In this document: positions 10,917-63,153 of the stretch, piece by piece
Layout of the letters: every line of letters begins with the position of its first letter
Numbering within the stretch: the stretch's first letter is position 1
Origin: Tolypothrix brevis GSE-NOS-MK-07-07A
GTDB lineage: Bacteria; Cyanobacteriota; Cyanobacteriia; Cyanobacteriales; Nostocaceae
Assembly: GCA_019358985.1 (NCBI GenBank)
Contig: JAHHIJ010000001.1
Span: forward strand, 186,001 to 250,000
Direction of reading: 5' to 3'
Length of the DNA stretch: 64,000 nt
Position numbers and translations under genes: made by a program
The notes under the pieces: generated by a model
The model's database searches: none
What the model was told of the DNA's origin: nothing
Seen by the model: the letters and a program-made list of their open reading frames with translations, nothing else

Positions 10917-11052
10917 CCATAGAGACTATTCTGTGCTACGTCTCTACATTTTTTCTACAATAGACATCTCCATAAATTAATTATGCGTTGCCCGAAACCC
11001 TTGTAGAGACGTAGCAGTGCTACGTCTCTACCTCTTTTCCAACAGATGTCTA
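10917..11052. repeat. Palindromic repeat plus 92-bp TAGACATC element
   Basis: At about 10919-10947 there is a degenerate hairpin (TAGAGACTATTC, then GTGCTACGTCTCTAC). From 10961 to 11052 there is a complete 92-bp element bounded by TAGACATC and GATGTCTA. Its centre (11003-11031) is a near-perfect palindrome with arms GTAGAGACGTAGCA and TGCTACGTCTCTAC. It ends about 13 bp downstream of rplL and could also form an RNA hairpin at the end of that transcript. Confidence 0.75.
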
Positions 11053-11064
11053 ATGGAATTTTGA

Positions 11065-11454
11065 CTACTTGACAGTCACCTTACCACCAGCTTCTTCGAT
11101 GCGTTTCTTGGCATCTTCAGCCGCATCCTTAGCAATACCTTCTTTAACAGCCTTGGGTGCAGCTTCCACCATGTCTTTGGCTTCTTTGAGACCCAAACCG
11201 GTCAATTCCCGGACAATCTTCAGCACGGCAATCTTCTTATCAGCTGGAACTGATTCTAGAACCACGTCAAACTCGGTTTGCTCTACTACTTCTTCAACAG
11301 GAGCAGCAGCACCAGGACCAGCCATCATCATCATACCGCCAGTGGATGCAGCACTTACGCCGAAAGCTTCTTCAATTTGCTTGACTAATTCAGATGCTTC
11401 CAGCAAAGTCAAGGATTTCAATTGTTCCAAAATTTGATCGGTTGTAGCAGACAT
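11065..11454 (-). CDS. rplL: 50S ribosomal protein L7/L12
   Basis: 129 residues. The N-terminal dimerisation helix region [20 protein letters not shown], an Ala/Gly-rich hinge (about residues 38-52) and the C-terminal domain with EKT-like [19 protein letters not shown] and [15 protein letters not shown] are all present. Forms the L12 stalk on L10, recruiting translational GTPases. Last gene of the secE-nusG-rplK-rplA-rplJ-rplL run, 118 bp after rplJ; the gap contains one palindromic repeat. Confidence 0.98.
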
Positions 11455-11539
11455 TGATATAACTCCTGTAATTTGTTTATTGGTTGATTGTTGGTTGTTA
11501 GTTGATAGTTGTTAGTTGTTATCTTTTCTTCTAACTCCC

Positions 11540-11568
11540 GTACAGACGTTCCACCGGAACGTCTCTAC
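11540..11568. repeat. Short palindromic repeat between rplJ and rplL
   Basis: 29 bp with arms close to GTACAGACGTTCC and GGAACGTCTCTAC, the GTTCC-type variant of the GTAGAGACG palindrome. It sits in the rplJ-rplL gap and would form a hairpin in the polycistronic mRNA. Confidence 0.75.
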
Positions 11569-11572
11569 CCAA

Positions 11573-12136
11573 CTACGATTCGCTTTCGGTGTTGTCGCTT
11601 TCGGCGTTGTCGCCTTTATCCTTGTCAGCAACTGCCTGCAAAGCCCGCGCCAAGGAACTGGGTACTTCGTTGATACCCACAGCAATCTTGGTAGCCAAGG
11701 CATTGATAGCTCCGGCAATTTGCGCCATGAGTTGTTCCTTAGATGGCAAGTCTCCAAGTATCTTGACATCAGGTTCTTTTAACAGGCGACCATCCATAAC
11801 GCCGCCGCGAAGTTCTGTCTTCTTGCTGGCTTTCTGGAAGTCTTGGTAAGCCTTAATTGCGCCAGAAAAATCTTCTTTAACTAGCAAAAAGGCTGAGGTA
11901 CCCTTGAGCAACTCGGACATTGGTTGCCACTTTTCCTGTCCTTCAATGGCAATGCCCATCAAGGTGTTCTTTGCCACCTTACAAACAGTGCCACTCGGAC
12001 GTAACCGCCGCCGTAAGTCAGTGATTTCGGCAACTGTTAGCCCTTGGTATTCAATTACCAGTGCCAAAGTTGACTCGCTCAAACTTTCTTTGAGGTCAGC
12101 AACGATTGCTTTTTTATCTTCTATCGTTCTTCCCAT
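11573..12136 (-). CDS. rplJ: 50S ribosomal protein L10
   Basis: 187 residues; starts MGRTIEDKKAIVADLKESL, with the L10 features GLTVAEITDLRRRLR and KVAKNTLMGIA and a helical C-terminus that binds L12 dimers. The C-terminal end carries an acidic near-repeat (DNAESDNTES). Builds the stalk base and, in bacteria generally, represses its own operon by binding the leader RNA. The ATG is preceded by AAGGAGGTGAAAC-like sequence, a strong ribosome site. Confidence 0.97.
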   Translation of the reverse strand: MGRTIEDKKAIVADLKESLSESTLALVIEYQGLTVAEITDLRRRLRPSGTVCKVAKNTLMGIAIEGQEKWQPMSELLKGTSAFLLVKEDFSGAIKAYQDFQKASKKTELRGGVMDGRLLKEPDVKILGDLPSKEQLMAQIAGAINALATKIAVGINEVPSSLARALQAVADKDKGDNAESDNTESES

Positions 12137-16201: not shown

Positions 16202-16294
16202 TATTTGATCTTTCCAATTTACTTTACCATGCACAAACGACTTGTTACAGCAAATTTCAGGTAAATGAGGTACATACGTAAAACCCAAAACCCT

Positions 16295-16323
16295 ATAGAG
16301 ACGTAGCAATGCTACGTCTCTAC
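16295..16323. repeat. Short palindromic repeat (GTAGCA type)
   Basis: Arms ATAGAGACGTAGCA and TGCTACGTCTCTA in the 170-bp gap between paralogue B and the convergent crtD-like gene. Could serve as a bidirectional hairpin at both 3' ends. Confidence 0.75.
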
Positions 16324-16370
16324 ATGTATTTCATAACAACGCAATCTGCTGTAATCATTCTACAATCGAT

Positions 16371-17974: not shown

Positions 17975-18002
17975 GTAGAGACGCGAAATTTCGCGTCTCT
18001 AC
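17975..18002. repeat. Short palindromic repeat (GCGAAATTTCGC type)
   Basis: Perfect 28-bp palindrome: arms GTAGAGACGCGAAA and TTTCGCGTCTCTAC. Upstream of crtD. The same sequence appears at 41719 and inside the TPR gene at 52103. Confidence 0.85.
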
Positions 18003-25332: not shown

Positions 25333-25353
25333 CAGACGTAGCATTGCTACGTC
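25333..25353. repeat. Short palindromic repeat (GTAGCA type)
   Basis: AGACGTAGCA, T, TGCTACGTCT: perfect arms with a truncated left flank. Lies in the 420-bp gap between the Uma2 gene and the HTH gene, which otherwise holds only repeats. Confidence 0.7.
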
Positions 25354-25401
25354 TCTACAAAAAGAGGGGTTTTCACTCTCTTATTTAGGATTGCTATATA
25401 T

Positions 25402-25493
25402 TAGACATCGACCGAATTGAACTATGCGTTGCCCCAAACCCTTGTAGAGACGTAGCACTGCTACGTCTTTACATTGTTTTCTGGAGATGTCTA
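25402..25493. repeat. 92-bp TAGACATC element
   Basis: Complete copy bounded by TAGACATC and GATGTCTA with the GTAGAGACGTAGCA palindrome in the middle (25444-25472). Same length as the copies at 10961, 48370 and 48463. Ends about 40 bp upstream of the HTH gene start. Confidence 0.8.
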
Positions 25494-28466: not shown

Positions 28467-28961
28467 GTCTCTATATTGGATGTTTGTATTAATGTACCAA
28501 TATCTGAAAATTAAAACAATGCCTTTTGAGAAAAATCACTAACCGAAAGGTTTTTTACCTAGAGTTCGCGAACCAAGTGACCGCAAACCGTTGACAATAA
28601 AGGTGCCCTTTGGGATTCGTGCCAAAATTATGGTAATACTAGTAGTCTGTCACATCACGCCTAGAAGTTATTGAACTATGGTTAGAAAGTAAAGCTGATC
28701 TTGATGATCAGACTTGAACAAGTTTAGACAAGAATTTATTGATTTAATCTAACTCCCAAAATAGAATAATTAGACGTAGCAATGCTACGTCTCTACAAGG
28801 GTTTTGGGTAACGCATAGTTCATCTATGGAGATGTCTATTATATTAGACATCTGTTGGAAAAGAGGTAAAGACTATTCTGTGCTACGTCTAATCAAGGGT
28901 TTGGGGCAACGCATAATTAATTTCTACGCCTATGTCTATTGAAATCATGCCATAATTTTTC
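28467..28961. repeat. Spacer with TAGACATC-type elements
   Basis: Holds the left end of the TnpB element (to about 28560), a TAGTCTGTCA end at about 28643 without a partner, a left-truncated TAGACATC-type copy (about 28770-28838) with a GTAGCA palindrome, and a second, 94-bp copy (28845-28938) whose centre is a damaged palindrome. The two copies lie head to tail. wecB ends 24 bp further on. Confidence 0.65.
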
Positions 28962-30138: not shown

Positions 30139-30167
30139 GTAGAGAGGTTCCTGTGGAACGTCTCTAC
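30139..30167. repeat. Short palindromic repeat (degenerate GTTCC type)
   Basis: GTAGAGAGGTTCC and GGAACGTCTCTAC with a TGT loop, in the 290-bp gap between wecB and the antiporter tail. The rest of the gap has no recognisable feature beyond HIP1 octamers. Confidence 0.6.
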
Positions 30168-36333: not shown

Positions 36334-36362
36334 GTAGAGACTATTCTGTGCTACGTCTCTAC
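36334..36362. repeat. Short palindromic repeat (damaged GTAGCA type)
   Basis: GTAGAGACTATTC and GTGCTACGTCTCTAC: the left arm is altered in the same way (CTATTC) as the copies at about 10919 and 28870. Between pilT and the KaiB-domain gene. Confidence 0.65.
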
Positions 36363-36407: not shown

Positions 36408-37169
36408 TTGAATCCAGATAAACCACTTTTACCCCAGTTGTTTAAGGGCATTGCGCTATTTACACCTGGAGGAGATTTAATTTATTGCATCGACCCTGCC
36501 AAAAAAGGTCGATGGCATTCGCATTTGTGCGCTTTTTTACAAGAAATTTTAGGCTTGCCAGAACCGCCTCATTTTTTAGTGCCTTGCTACACGGCAACTA
36601 TTGACCATTGGTTAGATCCGCGCACTCAGCAAGTACGAATTTTTGCGGAAGCTTATCCGTTGGTAATGCGACATCAAGCTGTGCTGAATGCTATTTTTGG
36701 CACGGGGAATTTAGTTTGGCATTCCTCTCCGTGGCAAGAGGGATTGTGCGATCGCATGGTATTATCTAGTTATCGATCTTCATTTGAGCAACTTTGGCAA
36801 GACCATGATTTAATTGTGCGTTTAGAGTTCTCTGAAGCTCAAGTATCTCCAGAACCGATCACTGCAATCCAAAAAGCCGAAGCGAAAACCCAAGGCTTTG
36901 TTCTTCGCTTATTTGTTGCCGGACATAGTGCCAACACTGAGCGCATCCTTAAAAATTTACACCAATTGTTAGAGCGATCGCTTAAGTATCCTTACACTTT
37001 AAAAGTTGTTGATGTTTTGACAAATCCTGAACAAGCAGAACTCGATCAGGTTTCAGCAACTCCCACTCTAGTTAAAGTTTGGCCCCACCCAATTCGGCGA
37101 ATGGTTGGTAATCTGGATAATGTGGAAAAAATCTTGCAAATGTTAGAAACTAAAAAAGACACATTGTAG
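36408..37169 (+). CDS. KaiB-domain protein with an additional N-terminal domain
   Basis: 253 residues if translated from the TTG at 36408; no ATG start covers the conserved N-terminal part. Residues about 162-250 are KaiB-like: FVLRLFVAGHSANTERILKN, then YTLKVVDVLTNPEQAE and ATPTLVKVWPHPIRRMVGNL. This resembles the thioredoxin-like N-domain of SasA and KaiB itself. Residues 1-150 (LPQLFKGIALFTPGGDLIYC, PHFLVPCYTATIDHWLDPRT) form a domain I do not recognise. No kaiA, kaiC or histidine kinase nearby. Follows pilT on the same strand with about 125 bp between. Confidence 0.75.
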   Translation: MNPDKPLLPQLFKGIALFTPGGDLIYCIDPAKKGRWHSHLCAFLQEILGLPEPPHFLVPCYTATIDHWLDPRTQQVRIFAEAYPLVMRHQAVLNAIFGTGNLVWHSSPWQEGLCDRMVLSSYRSSFEQLWQDHDLIVRLEFSEAQVSPEPITAIQKAEAKTQGFVLRLFVAGHSANTERILKNLHQLLERSLKYPYTLKVVDVLTNPEQAELDQVSATPTLVKVWPHPIRRMVGNLDNVEKILQMLETKKDTL

Positions 37170-37193
37170 AGACGTTTCGGTGGAACGTCTTAC
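37166..37193. repeat. Short palindromic repeat (GTTCC-like variant)
   Basis: GTAGAGACGTTTC, then TGGAACGTCTTAC, overlapping the last bases of the KaiB-domain gene (its TAG stop lies in the left arm). The remaining spacer to 37573 shows no gene or RNA that I recognise. Confidence 0.65.
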
Positions 37194-38370: not shown

Positions 38371-38432
38371 ACCGTCGTAGAGACGTTCCGGCGGAACGTC
38401 TTTACATGAGAAGCAATTTAGCGAAAATGATA
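38371..38432. repeat. Part of an ATATCATGTCCG-type element with GTTCC palindrome
   Basis: ACCGTCGTAGAGACGTTCC, GG, GGAACGTC, then a diverged tail ending AATGATATA. It preserves the unbroken junction ACCGTCGTAGAGACG that is split by an inserted element at 41688-41799. Confidence 0.65.
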
Positions 38433-41419: not shown

Positions 41420-41641
41420 TTAGGATTTATATCATGTCCGTTTAGTTGATAGTGCATGGTGGATAGCAGGGTAAGAGTACTTTTTTGGCGTTGCTGAATT
41501 GAGGTATGAATCTGGATGTAGAGACGTAGCACTGCTACGTCTAATCAAGGATTTTGGTATTATGTAAAATCCTGCGTCATACATGAAATCAGCAACGCCA
41601 CTTTTTTTATAACGCTAGGACTATCAACCAACTATCAACTA
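41420..41641. repeat. Repeat nest, first part: ATATCATGTCCG end and 115-bp TGGCGTTGCTGA element
   Basis: A lone ATATCATGTCCG end lies at 41429-41440. From 41486 to 41600 a complete 115-bp element has ends TGGCGTTGCTGA and TCAGCAACGCCA, flanked on each side by CTTTTT (41480-41485 and 41601-41606), a likely 6-bp target duplication. Its centre contains the GTAGAGACGTAGCA palindrome (41518-41542). Confidence 0.75.
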
Positions 41642-41853
41642 ATATCATGTCCGTTTAATTAACAGTAATAAAAACAACGCAACCGTCGTAGTAGTCTGTC
41701 AACATAAAAATGAAGGATGTAGAGACGCGAAATTTCGCGTCTCTACAAGGTTTCGGATAGTACAAACAATCCCTCAAAATCAAATTGACAGACTAGTAGA
41801 GACGTTCCGCCGGAACGTCTTTACAATTGTAAGTAATTTACCGGACATGATAT
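41642..41853. repeat. Nested miniature elements: TAGTCTGTCAA element inside ATATCATGTCCG element
   Basis: Outer ends ATATCATGTCCG (41642-41653) and CGGACATGATAT (41842-41853). Inside it, 41692-41795 is a 104-bp element with ends TAGTCTGTCAA and TTGACAGACTA, flanked by GTAG on both sides (41688-41691 and 41796-41799). Removing it plus one GTAG restores ACCGTCGTAGAGACG, which exists uninterrupted at 38371. The inner element carries the GCGAAATTTCGC palindrome (41719-41746); the outer carries the GTTCC palindrome (41796-41824). Confidence 0.85.
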
Positions 41854-43671: not shown

Positions 43672-43806
43672 CAATACGGTTCGGTTAAGGTTTTTTGATG
43701 AAAATTATAGATCACAAAGACGCGATAAATCGCCGTCTTTACAATAGATCCGTCCTTTGTAGAGACGGCGATTTATCGCGTCTCCTGCCTTAGCCGAACC
43801 GTATTG
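43672..43806. repeat. 135-bp CAATACGG miniature element
   Basis: Ends CAATACGGTTCGGTTAAGG and CCTTAGCCGAACCGTATTG are inverted repeats over 18 of 19 positions. The interior contains two copies of the GACGCGATAAATCGCCGTC segment in opposite orientation (about 43719-43739 and 43759-43783). A related 124-bp copy is at 56625-56748. Lies between cysT and sbpA. Confidence 0.85.
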
Positions 43807-45192: not shown

Positions 45193-45325
45193 TAGTCTGT
45201 CAATAAATAATTGATGGATAGATTAAGAGTAGAGACGGCGATTTATCGCGTCTTTCTAACCGTCAAAATAAAATTGACATAGGAGTGGAAAATAATATAG
45301 AGACGTAGCAGTGCTACGTCTCTAC
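45193..45325. repeat. TAGTCTGTCAA element plus second palindrome
   Basis: 45193-45281 has a left end TAGTCTGTCAA and a degenerate right end TTGACATA, with a GACGGCGATTTATCGCGTC palindrome inside (45229-45255). Right after it lies a GTAGCA palindrome (45297-45325) with the AAGGGTTTTGGATAA tail of the TAGACATC family. The 408-bp spacer upstream of sbpA has no other feature. Confidence 0.65.
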
Positions 45326-48369: not shown

Positions 48370-48554
48370 TAGACATCTCCAGAAAACAATGTAGAGACGT
48401 AGCACTGCTACGTCTAATCAAGGGTTTGGGGCAACGCATAGTTCAATTCGGTCGATGTCTATTAGACATCTCCAGATTCATACGTAAAGACGTTCCGCCG
48501 GAACGTCTCTACAAGGGTTTCGGGTAACGCATAATTAAATTCGGTCGATGTCTA
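48370..48554. repeat. Two TAGACATC elements in tandem
   Basis: Two 92-bp copies, 48370-48461 and 48463-48554, separated by one base. Both have TAGACATCTCCAGA starts and GGTCGATGTCTA ends. The first has a GTAGCA palindrome whose right arm is altered, while the second has a GTTCC palindrome (arms ACGTTCC and GGAACGT). So the same outer frame carries different centres. Confidence 0.85.
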
Positions 48555-49660: not shown

Positions 49661-49691
49661 TATTGATTCTAGACTAATTGCAAATTCAAAA

Positions 49692-52000: not shown

Positions 52001-52990
52001 ATGAGATTATCATTCTATAAATATCCCATAGGAAGGCTGATAAGTTTGATTTTGTTGGGTAGCGGGATTATCTTACCGTCTTTCCCTGCTTCTGGTACTC
52101 CTGTAGAGACGCGAAATTTCGCGTCTCTACAGGAGCGAAATTTCGCGTCTCTACAATTCCCTTCTCCCCTGAAGTTGGCGCAATATAATAGTAATCAAAG
52201 TGCTACAGATTGGTTAAATCAAGGCTTGCAGGCGATAAATGTCGGCAGAGTAGAAGATGCGATCGCTTCTTTTAACCAAGCAATTAAGCTAGACCCGAAT
52301 TTGGCACCAGCACATTATAATTTAGGGTTAGCCCTGCGACAAGTGGGACAATTACAACCTGCGGCAGATGCATTTTATCGCGCAACTCTAGTTGATCCTA
52401 AATTTGCTCCCGCTTTTGCTAATTTGGGGGGAGCGTTGTTGGAAGGTAATAATTTCCAACAGGCAAATGATTACTTACAACGAGCTTTACAACTTGATTC
52501 AAAGCTAGGTTTTGCTCATTATAATTTTGGTTTGCTGCGAGAGCAACAAGGCGATTGGGATAAAGCGATCGCATCTTTTAAAAAAGCAATGGAATATAGT
52601 AAAAATGCACCAGAACCAGCTTATCATCTGGGGATATCTTATCTTCAGCAAAACAAAGTTGATCAAGCAAAAGATGCATTTCGCAAAGCAGTGAAAATTA
52701 ATCCTAAATATTCCGAAGCTCATTACAGTTTGGGAACAATTTGGTATAACCAAAAGAAACCAAAAGAAGCTTTAGAAGCATTTAGAAAATCTGCTGAGGC
52801 AAACACAAATTATCCCAATGCTTATTACGGTGCGGGGTTAGTTTTTATGCAATTAAGACAATATCCGGAAGCTGCACAGGTATTACAATATGCCAGAGAT
52901 TTATATAATTCTCAGAATAATACTTTGTGGGCAAGAAATGCCGAACAATTGTTACAACAAGTACAGAATTTAAATTATCAACCCCGTTAA
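52001..52990 (+). CDS. TPR-repeat protein, exported, with repeat-derived linker
   Basis: 329 residues. A signal peptide covers about 1-31 (GRLISLILLGSGIILPSFPA). Residues 35-52 are translated from a double copy of the GCGAAATTTCGC palindrome and contain RNFASLQ twice. From residue 66 there are about seven TPR units (GLQAINVGRVEDAIASFNQA, GLALRQVGQLQPAADAFYRA and so on). Probably a periplasmic scaffold. The insertion keeps the frame and lies between signal peptide and first TPR, where it can be tolerated. Confidence 0.88.
   Translation: MRLSFYKYPIGRLISLILLGSGIILPSFPASGTPVETRNFASLQERNFASLQFPSPLKLAQYNSNQSATDWLNQGLQAINVGRVEDAIASFNQAIKLDPNLAPAHYNLGLALRQVGQLQPAADAFYRATLVDPKFAPAFANLGGALLEGNNFQQANDYLQRALQLDSKLGFAHYNFGLLREQQGDWDKAIASFKKAMEYSKNAPEPAYHLGISYLQQNKVDQAKDAFRKAVKINPKYSEAHYSLGTIWYNQKKPKEALEAFRKSAEANTNYPNAYYGAGLVFMQLRQYPEAAQVLQYARDLYNSQNNTLWARNAEQLLQQVQNLNYQPR
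52103..52154. repeat. Palindromic repeat inside the TPR gene
   Basis: One complete 28-bp GTAGAGACG-CGTCTCTAC palindrome (52103-52130) followed by a partial second copy (52137-52154). Total length keeps the reading frame. Confidence 0.9.
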
Positions 52991-53614: not shown

Positions 53615-53930
53615 TAGACATCTCCCAAAAATATGTAGAGACGTAGCAGTGCTACGTCTCTATAAGGGTTTTGGATAGCGCATAATTAATTTCGGTCGAT
53701 GTAATTATGCAGCTATTCATGAGGTACAGAATATTGAATTAACCGCAGATGAAGATAGATAAACGCAGATGGACGCAGATAAGTAGTTTTGGGCGAATGT
53801 AATTCGCTACTACACAGGCAAAGTCCGCCTACGCGGACTAACACAAACATCTTGGCTTTTCAACCCACCTCCGTGGGTTTTGTTTGTGTAGCCGCGAATT
53901 ATATTCGCTTTTCAAACAACCTCTTAAATA
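53615..53930. repeat. Repeat-filled spacer
   Basis: 53615-53706: TAGACATC-family element with GTAGCA palindrome and a damaged right end. About 53742-53785: direct repeats of the type GATAAACGCAGATGGACGC. 53793-53911: a larger foldback with ends GCGAATGTAATTCGC and GCGAATTATATTCGC enclosing hairpins AGTCCGCCTACGCGGACT and CCCACCTCCGTGGG. No gene seen. Confidence 0.7.
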
Positions 53931-54445: not shown

Positions 54446-54606
54446 TTAATCAACTTTTATCGGCTTTTATCATCGAAACTAGCTTTAATACGAACGGTAT
54501 TGGATTAGAGTTTAGCCGAAGTTTAATATAACTAACTTTAGCTAGAGGAAAGTTAATCACTTTCTGTGTAGCATATTTAATCAGTTCTTGTCACAAAAAG
54601 TGCATC

Positions 54607-56151
54607 ATGATGACCACAGCAGTTAGCACCATAACCGTTTCCCCGATGGATCGGTATAATCAGGAGTTAATTGATAATCTTCATCCTCCAAATTGGGTTA
54701 ACCCTGAACCTGCACCGAGTTACAATTTGGTTGTAATTGGTGCAGGTACGGCTGGGTTGGTGACTGCTGCGGGTGCCGCAATGTTAGGTGCGAAAGTGGC
54801 TTTGATAGAAAAGCACTTGATGGGCGGTGATTGTACTAATGTGGGTTGTATACCATCAAAAACTCTGATTCGCTCTGCACGGGTAGTTGCAGATGTCTAT
54901 TACGCACAAGAATTTGGCATTGACAACCGTCATCAAATTAACATTGATTTTCCCGCAGTGATGGAGCGGTTGCGACGAATCCGAGCAGAAATTAGTCCCA
55001 ATGATTCTGCTAAACGCTTTCAAGAAGAGTTTGGTGTTGATGTGTTTTTTGGCGAGGCTCGATTTAAAGATAGTGATAGGGTAGAAGTGGGCGAAAGTGT
55101 TTTACACTTTAAAAAGGCTGCGATCGCTACAGGTTCGCATCCCACTAAATTACCCATTGATGGTTTAAATGAAACAAAATATCTGACTAATGAAACCGTG
55201 TTTTCTCTGACACAATGCCCAAATCGATTAGCGGTAATTGGCGGAGGTTACATCGGTTGCGAATTAGCTCAGACTTTTCAACGCTTAGGTTCACAAGTTA
55301 TTTTACTACAAAGAGGTTCGCGTTTACTCAGTCGTGAAGATGCAGAAGCAGCAAAGATTATTCAAAAAGCTTTTGTGCGCGAGGGTATTGAGTTACGTTT
55401 TGAGTCTAAAATTAAACGCATTGAACACGACAATGTAGAAAAAGTCATTCGTTACGAGATTAACGGACAAGAGGAAGTGCTTGGAGTTGATGAAATTTTA
55501 GTCGCGACTGGGCGATCGCCTAATGTAAAAAATTTGAATCTCGAAGCTGTGGGTGTACAATATGATGAAAAGCAAGGCATTATAATCAATGACTACTTAC
55601 AGACAACTAATCCCCGCATTTATGCAGTAGGGGATGTTTGCATGAAGTGGAAATTTACACATGCTGCTGATGCTGCTGCTAGAATTGTAATTCAAAATGC
55701 CCTGTTTTCGATTCTTGGGGTGGGACGTAAGAAACTAAGTTCTTTAATTATGCCTTGGTGTACTTATACCGATCCAGAAGTAGCCCATGTAGGGATGTAT
55801 CCGCAAGAAGCTGAGGAAAAGGGTATTGAGATTGATACATTTAGCGTTGCTTTTAAGGATGTGGATCGAGCAATCGTTGATGGGGAAACTGAGGGATTTA
55901 CTAAGTTATATGTCAAGAAGGGAACAGATAAGATTTTAGGAGCAACGATAGTCGCTCGACATGCCGGTGAGATGATTAGCGAAGTGACCTTAGCAATAAC
56001 TAATAATTTGGGTTTGAATGCGATCGCTAAAACAATTCATCCCTATCCTACCCAAGCCGAATCTATTCGCAAGGCTGCTGATAAGTATAGCATTGCCCGT
56101 TTGCACAGTGTGAAGAAGTTATCTTCGGCTTGGTTAGCGTGGAAACGTTAG
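54607..56151 (+). CDS. Mercuric reductase-like pyridine nucleotide-disulfide oxidoreductase
   Basis: 514 residues. FAD site VIGAGTAGLVTAAGAAMLGA (about residues 42-61), redox-active disulfide GGDCTNVGCIPSKTL, NAD(P) site AVIGGGYIGCELAQTF and the second FAD contact YAVGDV. The interface end has HPYPTQAESIRKAAD with His-Pro, as in the family. The C-terminal vicinal Cys pair of true MerA is absent (ends SSAWLAWKR) and no N-terminal HMA domain or mer genes are present, so mercury reduction is doubtful. Confidence 0.9.
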   Translation: MMTTAVSTITVSPMDRYNQELIDNLHPPNWVNPEPAPSYNLVVIGAGTAGLVTAAGAAMLGAKVALIEKHLMGGDCTNVGCIPSKTLIRSARVVADVYYAQEFGIDNRHQINIDFPAVMERLRRIRAEISPNDSAKRFQEEFGVDVFFGEARFKDSDRVEVGESVLHFKKAAIATGSHPTKLPIDGLNETKYLTNETVFSLTQCPNRLAVIGGGYIGCELAQTFQRLGSQVILLQRGSRLLSREDAEAAKIIQKAFVREGIELRFESKIKRIEHDNVEKVIRYEINGQEEVLGVDEILVATGRSPNVKNLNLEAVGVQYDEKQGIIINDYLQTTNPRIYAVGDVCMKWKFTHAADAAARIVIQNALFSILGVGRKKLSSLIMPWCTYTDPEVAHVGMYPQEAEEKGIEIDTFSVAFKDVDRAIVDGETEGFTKLYVKKGTDKILGATIVARHAGEMISEVTLAITNNLGLNAIAKTIHPYPTQAESIRKAADKYSIARLHSVKKLSSAWLAWKR

Positions 56152-56224
56152 GAGCGAAAATTAAATAATATCCGATTTCCTCCGATCTAATTCACCCCCT
56201 ACCCCTCTTTTTATCAGAAAAATG

Positions 56225-56540
56225 GGTTTAAAACCCTGTGCTTCGTTTCCCGGCTTTGCGTGGTAGTATGTATATACCGCAAAGCCGACGGGCAACTTGA
56301 CTCAACCGAACACGTCTTAGCAACGTGGTGTCCGGGCAAACGTTGCAAACGGTGTAGTACCGATGGGCTGTCGGGAATCCAAAACGCCTATGCAGACGGT
56401 TTGCCGGGGATTGAGGCAACTCAATCTAGGTCAAAGTCGAAAACCCGTAAGGAAGTAACTAGGAAATCTAAGAAGTGATTCTTAGAAGCTCCGTCCGCGA
56501 CGGTCGGAGTCATGTCACTAATTAAGGCTACGGTGTACAC
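56225..56540 (+). mobile_element. Probable degenerate right end of an IS200/IS605-type element
   Basis: A basic frame (56260-56478) ends QSRSKSKTRKEVTRKSKK, the kind of tail found on TnpB proteins, without any catalytic part. After its stop, CTCCGTCCG, CGA, CGGTCGGAG form a stem followed by TCATGTCAC, similar to IS605-family right ends as I recall them. No TnpB domain or left end was found. Confidence 0.4.
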
Positions 56541-56624
56541 ACAAGTCGGAAAAATTCCATCCACCAAAGGTTTGCGGTGCGTTACGCTGGCGTGACAAAG
56601 CTAAATTGTTGTATTGAGGAACCC

Positions 56625-56748
56625 CAATACGGTTTGGATAAGGTAAATTGAATGAAAATCATAGATCACAAAGACGCGATAAATCGCCGTCTTTACAATT
56701 GTAGAGACGGCGATTTATCGCGTCTCTTGCCTTAACCGAACCGTATTG
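56625..56748. repeat. 124-bp CAATACGG miniature element
   Basis: Ends CAATACGGTTTGGATAAGG and GCCTTAACCGAACCGTATTG. Its internal GACGCGATAAATCGCC and GGCGATTTATCGCGTC arms fold back over an ATTGTAGA centre. TGAGGAACCC occurs on both sides (56615-56624 and 56749-56758), which is also the unit start of the adjacent 21-bp array. Confidence 0.82.
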
Positions 56749-56749
56749 T

Positions 56750-56991
56750 GAGGAACCCATTAATCGTTTTGAGGAACCCATTAATCGTTTTGAGGAACCC
56801 AATAATCGTTTTGAGGAACCCATTAATCGTTTTGAGGAACCCAATAATCGTTTTGAGGAACCCAATAATCGTTTTGAGGAACCCAATAATCGTTTTGAGG
56901 AACCCAATAATCGTTTTGAGGAACCCATTAATCGTTTTGAGGAACCCAATAATCGTTTTGAGGAACCCAATAATCGTTTTGAGGAACCCAT
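56750..56991. repeat. 21-bp tandem repeat array, 11 full units
   Basis: Unit GAGGAACCCAWTAATCGTTT plus T, repeated 11 times with only one variable position (A or T at base 11), then a partial unit. Since 21 is a multiple of three, frames stay open across it on both strands (GSSKRLL/GSSKRLM or NPLIVLR repeats), but none has a plausible start. Lies just downstream of the ClC gene. Confidence 0.92.
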
Positions 56992-57029
56992 TTGTTATTT
57001 CGGCGTGTCCATAACACACCATACTGAGG

Positions 57030-59759
57030 TTAGAAACTGTTAATGGCACCTCTGACTAAAATCACTGTACTTTCTACACTGGATGCGATCGCTTCGGGAA
57101 TATTACCTTGAATTGCTTGCTGTAACATTCCTTCTCGCGAAGCACCTAAAACCACTACATCATAACCCTCGGTTTTTACTAAGTTAATTATTCCTTCCGC
57201 AACCGATTCGGCTTTCACAGGTACAGCGGTAACAGTACTAGACAACTTGCGACGACGAATCAATTGGCGAATCGATTGTTCTAAAATTGTCATGTCTGGT
57301 TTTAACTCAGATGGTTTGAACACCCGTGTGAGACGAATTTGTGGATCGTTCCCCAACGTGACTAACGCAGGTAGCAATTTAATCGCCAATAAAGCATTGG
57401 GACCACCTGCCATTGGTACTAACCAACTGTTGAAATGAGGAGACAGGGAGAGGGGGAGAGGGGGGGATGAGGGAGATGAGGGGGATGAGGGGGATGAGGG
57501 AGATGAGGGAGAAATTTTTTCATGTCGTCCCCCTTGTCCTACTTGTCCCCCTTGTTCCCTTGTCTCAACATTCGTCGCTAACTTCACCAACAACAAATCG
57601 CAGGTAGCTTGCTTAATTAAGGTATCGACAACATTACCAAAAATCTTACCTGGGGTAGATGTATTTCCTTTCCATCCCATTAAAAGTATGTCTATATATT
57701 GTTCGTTGATAGTTTCTAAAATTGCTTGTGCTGCATCGTGGGCAACGCGAATTTGTGTATGTAGGGGAATTTCCCACTTTTTCGCCATAACTTCGGCTTG
57801 TCTAAGCAAGCGGCGACTTTTTGCAGTTCTGACTGTTGTTTCTGATGGGGAACTGTGGCGGGATACTAACATTACTTGGATGCATTCTATTTCATAATGG
57901 CGATCGCGAGCAATTGCGAAAGCCATTTCTAATAAAGTTGCTGCTGTTTCGGGATTAGCGATGGGTACTAATAATTTGCCTCTGCCAATGCTAGGCGATC
58001 GCGTTTGATAAACTATATAAGAAGGTTCTGGTTGCGGTCCTGACGATGGATTTGTACAATTAAGATGATCTGCTTCGGCGCGAATTATATCTGCACGGGT
58101 AATAATCCCAATCAGCCTTCGTCCTTGCAGTACCGGCAAGCGACTGATTTTATACCTATCAAGTAAATATAGTACATTGCTTAAGTTGTGGGTGGGTGAT
58201 ACTGTCACCGGACTGGTGGTCATGATTTCCTTTAAAAGGATATCATTTGCGAGATTGCGATCGCGTATTTTGAGTAAATCTGATTGAGTGACAATTCCAA
58301 CTAACTTCCCTTCTTCTACCACCGGGAAACCACGGTGATGAGAATGGGCAAATGCCTGCATTGCTTCTTCTAAAGTTGTCTCTGCTTCTAGAGTTTCCAC
58401 TCGTTCCTGCATTACTTGTTTTGCAGTTAACTGTGTCAATATTCCTTCACTAGAAGCTTGCTTATTTATAGTTATGCCATTTATAAACAATAGTTTGTCA
58501 TACAATGACCCAGGCATAACTTTATCAGCAACTAAGTAAGATGTCACAGAAACAATCATTAAAGGTAGCACCAGATTGAAATCTGTAGTCATCTCAAATA
58601 CAATCACAATTGCGGTGATTGGTACTTTAGAAACCGCGCTGAAAAATCCTCCCATTCCCGCTAGTGCGTAAGTTGTGGGAGAACCTACACCCAAAAGGTG
58701 AAACTCGCCTACACCGACTAAATAGCCTAAAGTAGAACCTAAGATGAGACTGGGTGCAAATAAGCCTCCTGGCGCTCCCGAACCAAATGCAATCAAAGTT
58801 AAGATAAACTGAGCAATAAAAGCGATCGCTGCCCATGAAGCATTAGCATTACCAGTAATTATCTGTTCTCGTAAGCCAGTATTATCACGAAAGTAAGCAG
58901 GCAACATTGCCATGATAATTCCCGAAACTAAACCAGCTAACGCCACCCGCAATGGTAAGCTGATATGCAGACTGCGATAAAATTTTATACTTGCAATTAA
59001 GCCGTTACTAAATACCGCACCTAGCAACCCCGCAAAAATTCCCAATAGTACGAAAAAGGGAATTTCCTGAATCGAGAAGCTGGCGTAATACTTGATCGAT
59101 TCTAGATTAAGTAGCAAACTGCCACCACCCAACAGTCTGGATATTACCCCACCAATAAACGAAGCGATGATGGCGGTTCCTAGAGTTAATCCTGATAAAT
59201 CTTGAAGTAACTCCTCCACAATAAAGAATACCCCAGCGAGGGGAGCGTTGAAAGCTGCTGCTAAACCCGCACCGGCACCCGCAGCAATCATTTGTCGGCG
59301 ATGATCTGGAGAAGTGGGAACCAAGCGACTCATTCCCGCAGCTAAACCCGCACCTAATTGGACGGTAGGTCCTTGTCGTCCTAAAGTTATTCCCGATCCC
59401 AAAGCAATAATTGCACTAATTAACTTGATACCTGCCACGCGCCATGATAAGTTAATTGGAACATTCCCAAGGGAAGCTTTAACTTGAGGAATACCACTAC
59501 CAGAAGCCTCAGGTGCAAATCTTTCCACTAGAAAGCCAGCCATAAAGCCAAAGCTCATACCAACTGCGGGTAATACAATCCACGCTGGGAAAATATGGGA
59601 TGTATGAACTCGCCATGTACCCAAATATCCTGCACCAAATTTGAGGAAAACAGCAGATAAAGCGGCAACGACACCAATTAAACAAGCTTCGGCGATCGCT
59701 AAACCTCTTCTCGGCTGCCAAAAACTGCGAAAGCGCTGAGTCAGAACAGCAAGCGACAT
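57030..59759 (-). CDS. ClC-type chloride channel/transporter with CBS and USP domains
   Basis: 909 residues. ClC membrane part about 20-430: GSGIPQVK (residues 87-94), LGRQGPTVQLGAG with Gln129 where transporters have the gating Glu, FIVEELLQDL (internal proton Glu conserved). A CBS pair follows (about 445-570: VMQERVETLEAE, MTTSPVTVSPTHNLSNVLYL). Then two USP-like domains (LLVPIANPETAATLLEMAFA and NSWLVPMAGGPNALLAIKLL), separated by a Ser-Pro repeat linker (SSPSSPSSP). CBS and USP usually bind adenine nucleotides, so nucleotide-gated anion flux is plausible. Confidence 0.9.
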   Translation of the reverse strand: MSLAVLTQRFRSFWQPRRGLAIAEACLIGVVAALSAVFLKFGAGYLGTWRVHTSHIFPAWIVLPAVGMSFGFMAGFLVERFAPEASGSGIPQVKASLGNVPINLSWRVAGIKLISAIIALGSGITLGRQGPTVQLGAGLAAGMSRLVPTSPDHRRQMIAAGAGAGLAAAFNAPLAGVFFIVEELLQDLSGLTLGTAIIASFIGGVISRLLGGGSLLLNLESIKYYASFSIQEIPFFVLLGIFAGLLGAVFSNGLIASIKFYRSLHISLPLRVALAGLVSGIIMAMLPAYFRDNTGLREQIITGNANASWAAIAFIAQFILTLIAFGSGAPGGLFAPSLILGSTLGYLVGVGEFHLLGVGSPTTYALAGMGGFFSAVSKVPITAIVIVFEMTTDFNLVLPLMIVSVTSYLVADKVMPGSLYDKLLFINGITINKQASSEGILTQLTAKQVMQERVETLEAETTLEEAMQAFAHSHHRGFPVVEEGKLVGIVTQSDLLKIRDRNLANDILLKEIMTTSPVTVSPTHNLSNVLYLLDRYKISRLPVLQGRRLIGIITRADIIRAEADHLNCTNPSSGPQPEPSYIVYQTRSPSIGRGKLLVPIANPETAATLLEMAFAIARDRHYEIECIQVMLVSRHSSPSETTVRTAKSRRLLRQAEVMAKKWEIPLHTQIRVAHDAAQAILETINEQYIDILLMGWKGNTSTPGKIFGNVVDTLIKQATCDLLLVKLATNVETREQGGQVGQGGRHEKISPSSPSSPSSPSSPSSPPLPLSLSPHFNSWLVPMAGGPNALLAIKLLPALVTLGNDPQIRLTRVFKPSELKPDMTILEQSIRQLIRRRKLSSTVTAVPVKAESVAEGIINLVKTEGYDVVVLGASREGMLQQAIQGNIPEAIASSVESTVILVRGAINSF

Positions 59760-60084
59760 AAAATTAAAGATTTAAAGTATAAAACACCCATTAGTCAAAA
59801 GTCAAAAGTCAATGGTCAAGGGTCAAAAGTCAATAGTCAAGGGTCAATGGTCAAGGGTCAAAAGTCAAGAGTCAAGAGTCAATAGTCAAGAGTCAATAGT
59901 CAATAGTCAATAGTCAATAGTCAAGAGTCATTGGGGAATAGCCTTCTTACTTAATCCCTAGTAAGCTAATCGGCAGAAATAAAGCAACCATTTAAAATCC
60001 TTAAAAAGCCTAAATTATAAGCTTTTTGACCCTTGACCATTGACCATTGACCATTGACCATTGACCATTGACCATTGCGGTACT
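59760..60084. repeat. Heptanucleotide tandem repeats (STRR-like)
   Basis: 59793-59930: many units of AGTCAAT, GGTCAAA and AGTCAAG types, largely in 7-bp register. 60027-60077: TTGACCA repeated about seven times. Between them, 59940-60020 is unique sequence. Such short tandemly repeated repeats are known from heterocystous cyanobacteria. Confidence 0.85.
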
Positions 60085-61398
60085 TCAAGTTTTTCTGCCG
60101 GTGGTGGAAAGTCCGTCTACTACGAGAGACGGAGTGTAACAAGAACCATTCCAATCAGCATCGCCACCAAGTAAAACCACTTGTTTAAGAGCAGTATAGA
60201 CATTACCTGCAACCATAGTATCTTTAACTCGCCCAATTACTTGACCATTTTGGACGCGGTAGCCCAAATCAATATTGATGGAAAAGTCCCCAGAAATGCC
60301 ATGACCACCGCCCAAGATTTGATCTACAATCAAGCCATAATCCAACTTTTGAATCAAATCTTGTAGGGAAGCTGAACTAGGCTCGATTAAGAAATTAAAT
60401 AAACCAGGGGTAGGATAGCTACTCAAATCAGGGCGAAAACCGTTACCAGTGCTACTAGTACCTAATTGCGCTCCAATAGTGCGATCGCTATAAAAATTTT
60501 GCAAAACTCCATTTTCGATAAACACCAAAAGCTGAGTCGGTGTACCTTCATCATCAAAAGGACAGCTATATGGTCCGGCAACTGGGTCTTGGTATAAAGT
60601 TAGAGTTGGTGCGATTACTGTTTTACCAATCCGGGAAGCCCAAGGAGAAGATTTTTCCAGCACTCGTTTACCATTTAAAGCAGCTTGCACAGTACCCCAA
60701 AGCATATCAGCGGCTTTAGAAGTAAATAATACTGGAACGCGACCCTTAGGAGGTGAGACATTTTTTTTTGCCCAAATCAACCGCTGTAAAATTTGGTTAG
60801 CTACTTTCTCAGGATGCAAATCATACCGTTGAGTTTGACCATCAGCGACACTTAAAAAATCATCACCGCGTACCCATTCAGCTTCTACATAAGAATTAAG
60901 AGTTGTGTCGGTGTAGTAACAATCTAAACCTTTAGTGTTGACGAGTCGGGTAGTTTCCACATCGCATTCCCACTCAGCCGTACAGAGAACATCTGGGTAA
61001 GCATCTCGAATGATAGCGATCGCTTCCTTGCCCCAGTTTACCAACATCTCTATCGGCACATCTTCCCCCAAGTCTGGATAAAAAGATTGAGACGTGCTAT
61101 TTAATTCTATAGTTTCTGGTTGATTTAATTGACTTATAGACAGCGCCCGTTCCACCATTGCGGCAGCGGTAACAGAACCGTAAGCTACTGTAAGTCCTGG
61201 ACAACCATTGCGCCATAATCGGAGTGCTGTACCTTCCGCTTGACTGGTTTCTAGCTGTTTTAGACGATTTGCCTCAAAAAACACAGGTCGAGTGTGCGAT
61301 CGCGACTGATACACCTCAGCTGCCTCCGCTCCCGACTTGATAGCTAGTTCCAGCAACTGTTCTGCTAGTGTATCTTGTGACAAATTTTCAGAACCCAT
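60085..61398 (-). CDS. TldD/PmbA family protein, TldE/PmbA type
   Basis: 437 residues. Family blocks: SGAEAAEVYQSRSHTRPVFF, then GTALRLWRNGCPGLTVAYGS, the C-terminal LIVDQILGGGHGISGDFSIN and GYRVQNGQVIGRVKDTMVAG. The HExxxH metalloprotease motif of TldD is absent, so this is the TldE/PmbA partner. TldD-TldE degrade unfolded peptides and mature some modified peptides. The tldD gene is not adjacent in this window. Confidence 0.9.
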   Translation of the reverse strand: MGSENLSQDTLAEQLLELAIKSGAEAAEVYQSRSHTRPVFFEANRLKQLETSQAEGTALRLWRNGCPGLTVAYGSVTAAAMVERALSISQLNQPETIELNSTSQSFYPDLGEDVPIEMLVNWGKEAIAIIRDAYPDVLCTAEWECDVETTRLVNTKGLDCYYTDTTLNSYVEAEWVRGDDFLSVADGQTQRYDLHPEKVANQILQRLIWAKKNVSPPKGRVPVLFTSKAADMLWGTVQAALNGKRVLEKSSPWASRIGKTVIAPTLTLYQDPVAGPYSCPFDDEGTPTQLLVFIENGVLQNFYSDRTIGAQLGTSSTGNGFRPDLSSYPTPGLFNFLIEPSSASLQDLIQKLDYGLIVDQILGGGHGISGDFSINIDLGYRVQNGQVIGRVKDTMVAGNVYTALKQVVLLGGDADWNGSCYTPSLVVDGLSTTGRKT

Positions 61399-61572
61399 GA
61401 CCTTTGATGAATTTTGGATTAGTCATTGGTAATTTGAAGAGGGGTAAGGGGTAAAGGGGAAGGGGGAAAGGGTAAGAAATATAGAGTTATAGTGAATAAA
61501 TCCGTATTTATTTCCATACCTTTCCCCTTTCCCCTTTTCCCCTCCTCAAAAAGCCCAATTCCCTAACTAAAT
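61399..61572. other. Spacer with purine/pyrimidine simple sequence
   Basis: 61440-61470 AAGGGGTAAAGGGGAAGGGG and 61517-61545 CCTTTCCCCTTTTCCCCTCC are near-complementary, so they could pair into a long imperfect hairpin; a similar spacer precedes the fructosamine-kinase-like gene at 23395-23516. Confidence 0.55.
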
Positions 61573-62436
61573 TTACGGCAAATTGACCTCTTGCAACAGC
61601 CAGAAGCCAGCAAAAGATTCGGCTTGGCGATCGGACTGCACACCGATAAAATGAACTCCGTTAGCTTTTTGCTTTGCTTCTTCAAAACTTTTAGCTTCTA
61701 CTATAGTTTGGGGATTTTTGATATTCGCCAAAATCCAGCTTTCAGTCGCACCAGTTTCTAAAACTAATCTCGTCCCTTTACTTGTGTCAAGTCTCAACCA
61801 AGCCAACTCCAAACCAGACATCCAACCCGCTAAAGGTAGCGCTCTTGGTGAGAAAATTAACACACCAGGAATGCGGGTTTCCGGTGACAAATTCGCAAAT
61901 TCTATGGGGAAAGATTCGCCAAAGCCGATTTCCCACTCATGCATTTCTGCAAAATCCGCACCAGTTAAGGTAACAAATATCCATTGCTGCCCTTCCAAAG
62001 CATCTGGTAAACGTTGAGGTAAGGGACTTTCCAAACGCACTGAAGTATTAGTTCCCTCTTGATACCCAACTTCTTGAGGATACACCTGTTCGTTCCGCTC
62101 TTGCAGCCATTGATTAAGCATTAAAGTGCGACGGCTAGGTTGAGCGGGAATGCCCACATCCTGACAAGCTTTAGTGATCATATTATTCATTTGCCTGCGG
62201 AAAAAGCGGATTTTCAGCGGTGCAACTCCAGCTTGATTAATTGCTTCTTGCAACGCTGTCCGCAACCAACCGGAATTTACCTGCGTGCTGGGGCAATACT
62301 GAGCATAGCGAAATAAAGAATCAGCTTTTGTGCGCGTATCCAAAGGACTCTCGCACACTAACACCTCCCAAATTTTTTTGTTGTTCTCGTCCAAAATCGG
62401 ACGGGAGTAATAATCGAGTTCCCAAATACTGCCCAT
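61573..62436 (-). CDS. Tab2/Atab2 family RNA-binding protein
   Basis: 287 residues. Starts MGSIWELDYYSRPILDENNK, the family signature, with APLKIRFFRRQMNNMITKAC and LNQWLQERNEQVYPQEVGY. C-terminal end GFWLLQEVNLP is conserved. In plants and algae Tab2 homologues bind psaB mRNA and help photosystem I (and II) protein synthesis; the cyanobacterial role is not settled. Single gene. Confidence 0.92.
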   Translation of the reverse strand: MGSIWELDYYSRPILDENNKKIWEVLVCESPLDTRTKADSLFRYAQYCPSTQVNSGWLRTALQEAINQAGVAPLKIRFFRRQMNNMITKACQDVGIPAQPSRRTLMLNQWLQERNEQVYPQEVGYQEGTNTSVRLESPLPQRLPDALEGQQWIFVTLTGADFAEMHEWEIGFGESFPIEFANLSPETRIPGVLIFSPRALPLAGWMSGLELAWLRLDTSKGTRLVLETGATESWILANIKNPQTIVEAKSFEEAKQKANGVHFIGVQSDRQAESFAGFWLLQEVNLP

Positions 62437-62657
62437 GTTATGACGTTTAAGTCTGGCGACTTCATATTTTTTCTTATATTTTCATAATATAGGGCGTTGG
62501 TTGCGAGTCTCCTTATTCCTGAATTTATTCTCGTAGTCAGCGCTGAAGCGCTTAAAATAAAGCACTTAAGTTCTTACTACGTGTGAGATCGCGCAAGTCC
62601 ACGCCTTATGGATGATGGCGATTCTCTGTTATTTTTATTAAACTTTTAGAGACATCT

Positions 62658-62939
62658 GTGTCAAACTCCTTTAAACTAACTAAAGTGAAGCTACCTGAAC
62701 TAGATTTAGAAACCATTGACAGAGCGATGGAAATGGCGTGGGAAGATAGAACGCCATTTGAAGCAATTGAAAAACAATTTGGTTTACAAGAACAACAAGT
62801 TATTACCCTCATGCGTCGGGAAATGAAGCCATCCAGCTTTCGGATGTGGCGTCAACGTGTTGAAGGACGCAATACTAAACATTTGCACAAGCGAGAATTT
62901 CTGGCTGGTCGATTTAAGTCAGATAATCAAAAGACTTAA
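62658..62939 (+). CDS. TIGR03643/DUF2805 family protein
   Basis: 93 residues from a GTG at 62658. LDRAMEMAWEDRTPFEAIE-like segment followed by FGLQEQQVITLMRREMKPSS and FRMWRQRVEGRNTKHLHKRE, which defines this small family. Helix-turn-helix-like layout is possible. Function unknown. Confidence 0.85.
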   Translation: MSNSFKLTKVKLPELDLETIDRAMEMAWEDRTPFEAIEKQFGLQEQQVITLMRREMKPSSFRMWRQRVEGRNTKHLHKREFLAGRFKSDNQKT

Positions 62940-62963
62940 ACTCGCGCTTCTCATCTTTCCCTA

Positions 62964-63153
62964 TTAGACACAAAGAAAGTGGAAAAGAATGTAGAGACGT
63001 AGCACTGCTACGTCTAGTGCACTGCTACGTCTAATCAAGAGTTCTGGACAACGCATAGTTTCTTTTCGGAAATATCTAATGTAGAGACGTAGCAGTGCTA
63101 CGTCTAATGCACTGCTACGTCTAATCAAGGGTTCTGGACAACGCATAATTAGA
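62964..63153. repeat. Two degenerate TAGACATC-family units with internal duplication
   Basis: Two units (about 62964-63078 and 63079-63153). Each has a GTAGAGACGTAGCA palindrome half followed by an extra TGCACTGCTACGTCTA segment, so both share the same internal duplication and arose from one another. Outer ends are partly lost. Confidence 0.7.

What the first reader, a model, noticed from the sequence alone, without database searches (positions are those of the whole stretch)
10917..63153. One palindrome type shared by miniature elements with unrelated ends
A palindrome starting GTAGAGACG and ending CGTCTCTAC, with different middles (GTAGCA-TGCTAC, GTTCC-GGAAC, GCGAAATTTCGC, GGCGATTTATCGC), occurs more than 20 times. 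It sits inside elements whose terminal inverted repeats differ completely: TAGACATC, CAATACGG, TAGTCTGTCAA, ATATCATGTCCG and TGGCGTTGCTGA. This suggests the palindrome is a separate mobile or gene-converting unit that invades miniature elements, or a functional core that different transposases move. Family ends and cores are seen directly; the mechanism is inferred.
Basis: partly seen in the sequence, partly recalled or inferred. Interest (0 to 1): 0.72.

Follow-up and report, generated by a model that had tools for sequence, protein, structure and literature searches.

The report
Self-moving palindrome riding in mini-transposons
The repeated palindrome is most likely a tiny mobile DNA hairpin (a 'double-foot' REP element) handled by its own single-strand transposase, which sits elsewhere in the genome; it has settled inside several unrelated mini-transposons, and its middle part can change while its outer arms stay the same.

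Summary
The window has 20 non-overlapping GTAGAGACG...CGTCTCTAC palindromes (up to 3 arm mismatches; 4 exact, 0 in 100 shuffles) plus 6 half or damaged copies, several inside miniature elements with unrelated ends. The genome has 327 exact ones.

It is most likely a REP element of a RAYT (TnpA-REP) system. The window's genome encodes an open RAYT frame (C14:39821-40483) with palindromes on both sides and one inside the frame. The same pairing occurs in Bacteroidota, Chloroflexota, Patescibacteria, Planktothrix and others. This anatomy was published in 2018 as the 'double-foot' REPs of TnpA-REP subclass 2.4, including REPs inside the gene (PMC6006769). So it is a new member of a known kind.

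Not seen in the papers I could search: (i) a 9-bp arm kept across about ten phyla while the self-complementary core varies (77 cores in 125 sites); (ii) at 3 of 7 orthologous places the core type differs while the arms are kept; (iii) fixed residence in several miniature-element families.

The parts
10919..10947 (.). palindrome, 2 arm mismatches (core ATTCTGTGCTA, asymmetric)
10961..11052 (.). family A miniature element, 92 bp, ends TAGACATC/GATGTCTA
   Evidence: C41:196961, length 92
11003..11031 (.). exact palindrome, TAGCA-type core, inside family A element
11540..11568 (.). palindrome GTACAGACG-TTCCACCGGAA-CGTCTCTAC; the orthologous place carries other cores in G001 and G002, none in G003
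16245..16354 (.). family C miniature element (TACAGCA... ends), approximate limits
16295..16323 (.). palindrome, 1 mismatch, TAGCA-type core, in family C element
17975..18002 (.). exact palindrome, CGAAATTTCG core; four species have four different cores here
25350..25358 (.). single arm of a damaged palindrome (TAGCATTGCTACGTCTCTAC)
25402..25493 (.). family A miniature element, 92 bp
   Evidence: C41:211402
25444..25472 (.). palindrome, 1 mismatch, TAGCA-type core, in family A element
28788..28796 (.). single arm of a damaged palindrome, TAGCA-type core
30139..30167 (.). palindrome, 1 mismatch, core TTCCTGTGGAA, with a family D-like end motif nearby
36334..36362 (.). palindrome, 1 mismatch, core ATTCTGTGCTA
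37166..37174 (.). single arm of a damaged palindrome (TTTCGGTGGAA core)
38377..38405 (.). palindrome, 1 mismatch, TTCCGGCGGAA; G004 orthologue has TTCCACCGGAA and a damaged right arm
41486..41600 (.). family D miniature element, ends TGGCGTTGCTGA/TCAGCAACGCCA
41518..41546 (.). palindrome with damaged right arm, TAGCA-type core, in family D element
41642..41853 (.). family B miniature element (ATATCATGTCCG ends) interrupted by a family F element
41692..41795 (.). family F miniature element, 104 bp, inserted at the GTAG foot of the family B palindrome (GTAG on both sides)
41719..41746 (.). exact palindrome, CGAAATTTCG core, in family F element
41796..41824 (.). palindrome of the family B element, 1 mismatch, TTCCGCCGGAA
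43672..43806 (.). family E miniature element, 135 bp, CAATACGG ends
   Evidence: C41:229672
43759..43787 (.). palindrome, 3 mismatches, GGCGATTTATCGC middle, in family E element
45229..45257 (.). palindrome, 3 mismatches, GGCGATTTATCGC middle
45297..45325 (.). palindrome, 1 mismatch, TAGCA-type core
48370..48461 (.). family A miniature element, 92 bp
   Evidence: C41:234370
48391..48419 (.). palindrome, 3 mismatches, TAGCA-type core, in family A element
48463..48554 (.). family A miniature element, 92 bp
   Evidence: C41:234463
48484..48512 (.). palindrome, 1 mismatch, TTCC-type core, in family A element (the neighbouring copy has a TAGCA-type core)
52103..52130 (.). exact palindrome, CGAAATTTCG core, followed by a half copy at 52146
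53635..53663 (.). palindrome, 1 mismatch, TAGCA-type core, in a degenerate family A element
56625..56748 (.). family E miniature element, 124 bp
   Evidence: C41:242625
56701..56729 (.). palindrome, 2 mismatches, GGCGATTTATCGC middle, in family E element
62991..62999 (.). single arm of a damaged palindrome, TAGCA-type core
63081..63089 (.). single arm of a damaged palindrome, TAGCA-type core

Best explanation
The palindrome is a 'double-foot' REP element of a RAYT (TnpA-REP) system: a 28-29 bp hairpin with the tetranucleotide foot GTAG at one end and its complement CTAC at the other, spread by a Y1/HUH single-strand transposase encoded elsewhere in the same genome (C14:39821-40483, 220 aa). 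Shown: the anatomy, the copy number, the RAYT gene with palindromes beside it and in its frame, the recurrence of that pairing in other phyla, one clean empty site for a lone palindrome, empty sites for whole miniature elements, and different cores at orthologous places. Inferred: that this RAYT cuts and joins these hairpins (cleavage at CT is known for group 2 and 3 TnpA-REP, PMC8266576, passages; this group was not tested there); that REPs landed in founders of several miniature-element families, which then carried them along by their own transposases; and that cores are replaced in place.
For: Own-genome RAYT: open frame with HUH motif PNHMH, WQ and YIINNP motifs; best family REP_Tyr_transpos NF047646, E 9e-18. 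4 palindromes with up to 2 mismatches lie in the gene +-500 bp, against a mean of 0.41 in random windows of the held own sequence; 1.3% of 20000 windows reach 4. In 116 stretches fetched only because they hold the palindrome, 9 contain a RAYT match (one, L051, a short piece) and 9 of 9 have a palindrome inside the matched stretch or within 75 bp. Of 16 loci with a RAYT match that were fetched through protein similarity, 6 have a palindrome in the frame (L325, L327, L328, L331) or only within 150 bp (L206, L329). Structure model of the L318 RAYT: best PDB match 4er8, TnpA-REP bound to a REP hairpin, E 2.1e-6, narrowly ahead of the related IS608 transposase at 3.6e-6. Cores: 110 of 125 sites pair at all or all but one position, control 1.9%. 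Published match: subclass 2.4 double-foot REPs, REPs in frame inside the gene.
Against: The RAYT of this genome scores below NCBIfam's curated cut-off (64.5 against 80 bits), gets no Pfam hit and only E 0.1 to 4er8 by sequence. 10 of the 16 similarity-fetched RAYT loci have no palindrome within 700 bp. Some palindrome genomes show no such protein: 6 of 37 had no match, among them G526 with 184 exact palindromes, and 4 of 25 had no PF01797 match. A first look at Y1 genes in general showed little: 3 of 30 loci with any palindrome, and loci L297-L316 held 7 exact palindromes against about 3.5 expected by a hand estimate from genome densities. No excision or transposition was observed.
Confidence: 0.85

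Rival explanations
1. Common descent only: the palindrome is an old internal part of one ancestral miniature element whose ends were later replaced; lone palindromes are remnants.
For: Families A, C, D and F share more than the palindrome: an outward AAGGGTTT-like motif next to it in 47 of 83 (A), 6 of 11 (C), 5 of 10 (D), 1 of 4 (F) and 42 of 169 unassigned copies, against 1.8% per side at random positions. Pairs of copies with at least 95% flank identity do not differ in core type (0 of 20 typed pairs).
Against: Families B (3 of 20) and E (2 of 11) show the motif rarely. A lone palindrome has a clean empty site, and palindromes lie inside RAYT genes of several phyla.
Confidence: 0.25
2. The different cores at one orthologous place come from independent insertions into a preferred target, not from replacement in place.
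For: HUH transposases can have preferred targets (recalled); two of the three places lie next to heptamer-like repeats, where the GTACAG arm variant also occurs with several cores.
Against: At window 11540 the rare GTACAG left arm (29 of 616 arms) is shared by G000, G001 and G002 although the cores differ; at C14:155772 the CGTCTGTAC right arm is shared by G000 and G003. At 17975 arms differ by 0-1 of 18 positions and cores by 5-8 of 11.
Confidence: 0.3
3. The palindrome is a transcription terminator or protein-binding site kept by selection on host genes.
For: It is a strong hairpin. Its place relative to genes was not tested.
Against: Hundreds of copies, tandem arrays, cores that differ between species and between orthologous places, residence in mobile elements and in RAYT genes. 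By eye, most copies have no T run next to them.
Confidence: 0.04

Closest known systems
Double-foot REPs of TnpA-REP (RAYT) subclass 2.4 (Quentin et al. 2018, PMC6006769; sections 12-13 and passages read)
   Same: GTAG plus complementary CTAC ends, long hairpin, flank the tnpA-REP gene, found in frame inside that gene between HuH and Y motifs, Cyanobacteria, Bacteroidetes and scattered phyla.
   Different: The main text has no occurrence of GTAGAGACG, Nostoc, Anabaena or MITE; the parts read do not mention exchange of cores at orthologous places. Its supplements and figures were not seen.
GTAG REPs GTAG-12, -15, -16 of cyanobacteria (Di Nocera et al. 2013, PMC3733652; abstract, sections 5, 16 and passages read)
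   Same: Short GTAG-tagged palindromes in Nostoc and Anabaena; many A. variabilis GTAG-15 dimers sit inside other palindromic repeats.
   Different: Tag described as unpaired; the consensus sequences are in a figure that is not held, so identity could not be checked.
SDR elements of Nostoc punctiforme (Elhai et al. 2008, not held; abstract recalled)
   Same: As recalled: tiny mobile repeats with conserved hairpins, found in minitransposons, in heptamer repeats and nested.
   Different: As recalled 21-27 nt against 28-29 here; sequences could not be compared.
REPIN / BIME with group 2-3 RAYTs (PMC3116915, PMC8266576; passages read)
   Same: RAYT-associated hairpins with a GTAG foot.
   Different: There the proposed unit is an inverted pair of REPs; here many copies are single symmetric hairpins (100 of 169 unassigned copies have no other within 150 bp).

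Membership tests
REP element, double-foot type of TnpA-REP subclass 2.4 | Short hairpin, high copy number, dispersed | tested here: met
   327 exact copies in the genome, control 0; 308 with up to 2 mismatches in 1.22 Mb
REP element, double-foot type of TnpA-REP subclass 2.4 | 5' GT[AG]G foot and complementary 3' C[TC]AC | tested here: met
   of 308, 72 have both arms exact (GTAG and CTAC) and 94 have GTAG on one side and GTAA on the other, so many copies keep one foot only
REP element, double-foot type of TnpA-REP subclass 2.4 | tnpA-REP gene in the same genome flanked by the same REPs | tested here: met
   C14:39821-40483; palindromes with up to 2 mismatches at 39712 on one side and 40601, 40694 on the other, more degenerate ones between
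REP element, double-foot type of TnpA-REP subclass 2.4 | REP inside the gene, frame kept, between HuH and Y motifs | tested here: met
   own gene: palindrome C14:40071-40099 plus 18-nt half copies; also L063, L092, L111, L138, L144, L317, L318, L325, L327, L328, L331, and L121 (which has a stop further on)
REP element, double-foot type of TnpA-REP subclass 2.4 | Protein motifs NH[IFV]H, WQ, YIxNNP | tested here: inconclusive
   own protein has NHMH, WQ, YIINNP: one position outside the published pattern; NCBIfam score under its cut-off
REP element, double-foot type of TnpA-REP subclass 2.4 | Cleavage and joining of the single-stranded hairpin by the protein | not testable with these tools
   needs biochemistry
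REPIN (inverted REP doublet) | Two inverted REPs separated by a spacer as the moving unit | tested here: inconclusive
   100 of 169 palindromes without an assigned end type have no other palindrome within 150 bp; the moving unit itself was not observed
MITE (families A-F that carry the palindrome) | Terminal inverted repeats and target duplication with empty sites | tested here: met
   families A and C: whole element absent in relatives with TTA at the junction (read by eye); B, D, E and F judged mainly by their ends
SDR of Elhai et al. 2008 | Sequence identity to SDR1-8 | not testable with these tools
   paper not held

The most novel reading that the evidence does not exclude
The hairpin behaves as a cassette: its RAYT exchanges the core of one resident REP for that of another, perhaps by cutting at the CT inside the CGTCT arm, so a genome's palindromes keep their feet and places while their cores are rewritten, giving each lineage its own core set around one arm that has stayed constant across bacterial phyla.
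Probability: 0.3. Interest if true: 0.72.

Novelty: new member of a known kind. Interest (0 to 1): 0.52.

Why it matters
It answers what the shared palindrome is and where its likely enzyme lies, for a cyanobacterial genus whose five held genomes have 73 to 515 exact copies. If cores are really replaced in place, RAYT systems would do something not described in the parts of the papers I read: rewriting existing REPs instead of only adding new ones. That would give a simple account of why REP stems diverge between species while the foot stays, and it is testable in one tube. The constant 9-bp arm in many phyla also gives a handle to follow one REP lineage across bacteria.

Tried and rejected
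1. Y1 transposases in general (PF01797): 6 hits in the own genome; two of the three strongest, L045 and L046, look IS605-like, with a divergent tnpB-like frame by my reading (not searched). 3 of 30 Y1 loci have any palindrome. Pfam misses the right protein. I first wrote RAYT off in a note and had to take that back.

2. Autonomous transposons with the ends of families A-F: in 1.22 Mb held, 4 candidate pairs for A and 15 for C had a long frame, and those printed (4 and 6) look like host genes; none for B, D, E, F. This covers about a fifth of the genome.

3. A conserved peptide as the reason for palindromes in RAYT genes: rejected, because the palindrome is read in different frames (VETxxxxASLQ, RDAMHRVST, VETLQCNVST).

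4. Random association of cores and ends: not random, not fixed. Cramer's V is inflated by copies that share descent.

5. Rows dropped: one search used 308 of 328 palindromes (those with up to 2 arm mismatches). Orthologous comparisons: 149 (25 spanning, 124 split; reciprocal pairs counted twice); only split cases with short gaps were printed and read, so more places may exist. One pair with palindromes at nearby but different spots (G003 C2:138820, G001 C191:101804) was not counted. The window stretch 48001-64000 was not searched in relatives.

6. Many palindrome genomes outside Cyanobacteria are metagenome bins; mis-binning cannot be excluded (for instance the Planctomycetaceae bin G028 and the Dysgonamonadaceae bin G014 share a core, CAATGCATTG; both come from termite-like bin sets by their titles).

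7. Papers seen only as passages without anything that bears on this palindrome: PMC6513891, PMC3542288, PMC6390638, PMC4692102.
Full report
WHAT IS THERE. The window holds 4 exact GTAGAGACG-core-CGTCTCTAC palindromes, none in 100 shuffles, and 20 non-overlapping sites with up to 3 arm mismatches plus 6 half or damaged copies. The genome (6.52 Mb, 74 contigs; window = C41:186001-250000) has 327 exact copies and 0 of the reversed control; the four other genomes of the genus have 146, 515, 73 and 112, the last 54% complete. In 1.22 Mb of the own genome I catalogued 328 palindromes with up to 3 arm mismatches, 308 with at most 2. Main cores are TTCCnnnGGAA, TAGCAnTGCTA and CGAnnnnTCG. Copies lie in miniature elements with at least six kinds of ends, in tandem arrays, and alone (whose output was cut in the middle).

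MINIATURE ELEMENTS. Family A (TAGACATC): 16 elements defined by their ends, 12 of them 92 bp; 12 of 16 have a palindrome that passed the filter, and 3 of the other 4 hold a more damaged one. In the 92-bp copies it lies 42 and 21 bp from the ends. Whole A and C elements are missing at the orthologous place in relatives, with TTA at the junction, so they move with the palindrome inside. Elements nest: a family F copy sits at the GTAG foot of the palindrome of a family B copy (window 41642-41853), and the other F copy found (C15:164118) also abuts a palindrome foot; a family B copy sits in the middle of a palindrome in L045.

ENDS AGAINST CORES. Of 308 palindromes, 139 got an end type; association with core type is real but loose. 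Among pairs of copies with 70-85% flank identity 88 of 257 typed pairs differ in core type; at 85-95% it is 3 of 16, at 95% and more 0 of 20; random pairs differ in 61%. So cores mostly follow descent and change now and then.

CORE CHANGE AT ORTHOLOGOUS PLACES. In the comparisons printed, seven places have a palindrome at the same spot in two or more genomes of the genus. Three have different core types: window 17975 (CGAAATTTCG in G000, CTCCACGGTCA in G004, TTCCATTGGAA in G001, TAGCATTCCTA in G002), window 11540 (TTCCACCGGAA, TTCCTTTCGTAA, CGAGGAACATCG in G000, G002, G001) and C14:155772 (TTCCGTCGGAA in G000, CGATTAATCG in G003). Three keep the core type but differ in the loop, each with a small difference in an arm as well (C15:27462, window 38377, C43:111185); one has the same core (C14:186820). 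At 17975 arm edits are 0-1 of 18 and core edits 5-8 of 11; at 11540, 0 of 18 and 4-10 of 12. The rare GTACAG arm is kept at 11540 and CGTCTGTAC at C14:155772. This speaks for replacement in place; independent insertion into a hot spot is not excluded.

A LONE PALINDROME WITH AN EMPTY SITE. G001 L171:4056 reads GAAAT-palindrome-AAAG where G003 reads GAAAAG. This is one case.

OTHER PHYLA. In 125 sites there are 77 different cores; 110 pair at all or all but one position, against 1.9% of random stretches; beyond the arms only a weak preference for T in front and A behind remains. Genomes whose places were listed have their own favoured cores, such as CAAAATTTTG in G012, CACGGCCGTG in G021, CAATGCATTG in G034 and TAGCGCGCTA in G025. 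Samples: 43 of 296 genomes of the phylum of G007 (a Bacteroidales bin by title; control pattern in 1), 67 of 386 of the window's phylum (control in 2), including 40 of 42 of the window's family.

THE TRANSPOSASE. A Rhodothermales bin has a RAYT between two identical palindromes (L206). With that protein as query, 31 of 37 palindrome genomes have a match. Reading 15 fetched regions and then every held locus showed RAYT genes with the palindrome inside the frame just after the HUH motif, and often beside the gene with a similar core. Three of the 15 regions had been chosen because one search already placed a palindrome in or at the gene (L317-L319); they are not counted in the 6 of 16. The own genome has such a gene: C14:39821-40483, minus strand, 220 aa, with palindrome C14:40071-40099 and five 18-nt half copies and a degenerate sixth in frame, and TTCC-type palindromes on both sides; TTCC is also the commonest core of the catalogue. 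NCBIfam's best name for the ten proteins scanned is REP-associated tyrosine transposase, each below its cut-off. A model of the L318 protein matches TnpA-REP with its REP hairpin, 4er8, best, just ahead of IS608 transposase; residues 91-100, encoded by the palindrome, fall in its low-confidence stretch 92-101. In a tree of 26 RAYT-like proteins the palindrome label needs 2 changes, shuffles 7.7; the label partly follows from how the loci were fetched.

LITERATURE. Quentin et al. 2018 (PMC6006769, sections 12, 13 and passages) describe this anatomy as double-foot REPs of subclass 2.4 with in-frame REPs in the gene. PMC8266576 (passages) shows cleavage at CT by group 2 and 3 enzymes. Di Nocera 2013 (PMC3733652, abstract, sections 5, 16 and passages) reports GTAG REPs in cyanobacteria. 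Among the titles listed by searches I saw none on core exchange or on this palindrome in miniature elements; one search found the arm string in 143 papers and listed only 20, none on bacterial repeats. Elhai 2008 is not held and, as I recall its abstract, reports small repeats within minitransposons.

VERDICT. The finding is real and largely explained: a known kind of REP with its RAYT. The in-place core replacement is the part worth testing.

Noticed in passing
window 41642-41853; own genome C15:164118: Both family F copies found lie directly at a palindrome foot (GTAG or CTAC repeated on either side), as if F targets REP feet.
   Followed up: partly
L045:1228-1369 (own genome C50): A family B element with its own palindrome is inserted in the middle of another palindrome (GTAGAGACGTTA | TTACATGTAACGTCTCTAC, TTA on both sides).
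   Followed up: no
own genome C41:147668 and G002 C388:41284: Own genome and G002 have different family A-like elements at the same TTA site that is empty in G001 and G003; either a hot spot or replacement of the whole interior.
   Followed up: no
families A, C, D, F in the own genome: An AAGGGTTT-like motif outward of the palindrome is shared by families with unrelated ends and by 42 of 169 unassigned copies (background 1.8% per side); unexplained.
   Followed up: partly
own genome, 308 palindromes: The commonest arm pairing is GTAG on one side and GTAA on the other (94), more than both GTAG (72); one intact foot may be enough.
   Followed up: no
own genome C14:40100-40210; L092; L144; L328: The loop of several RAYT genes that holds the palindrome also holds in-frame tandem repeats (QVETLH, HDS, proline-rich).
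   Followed up: no
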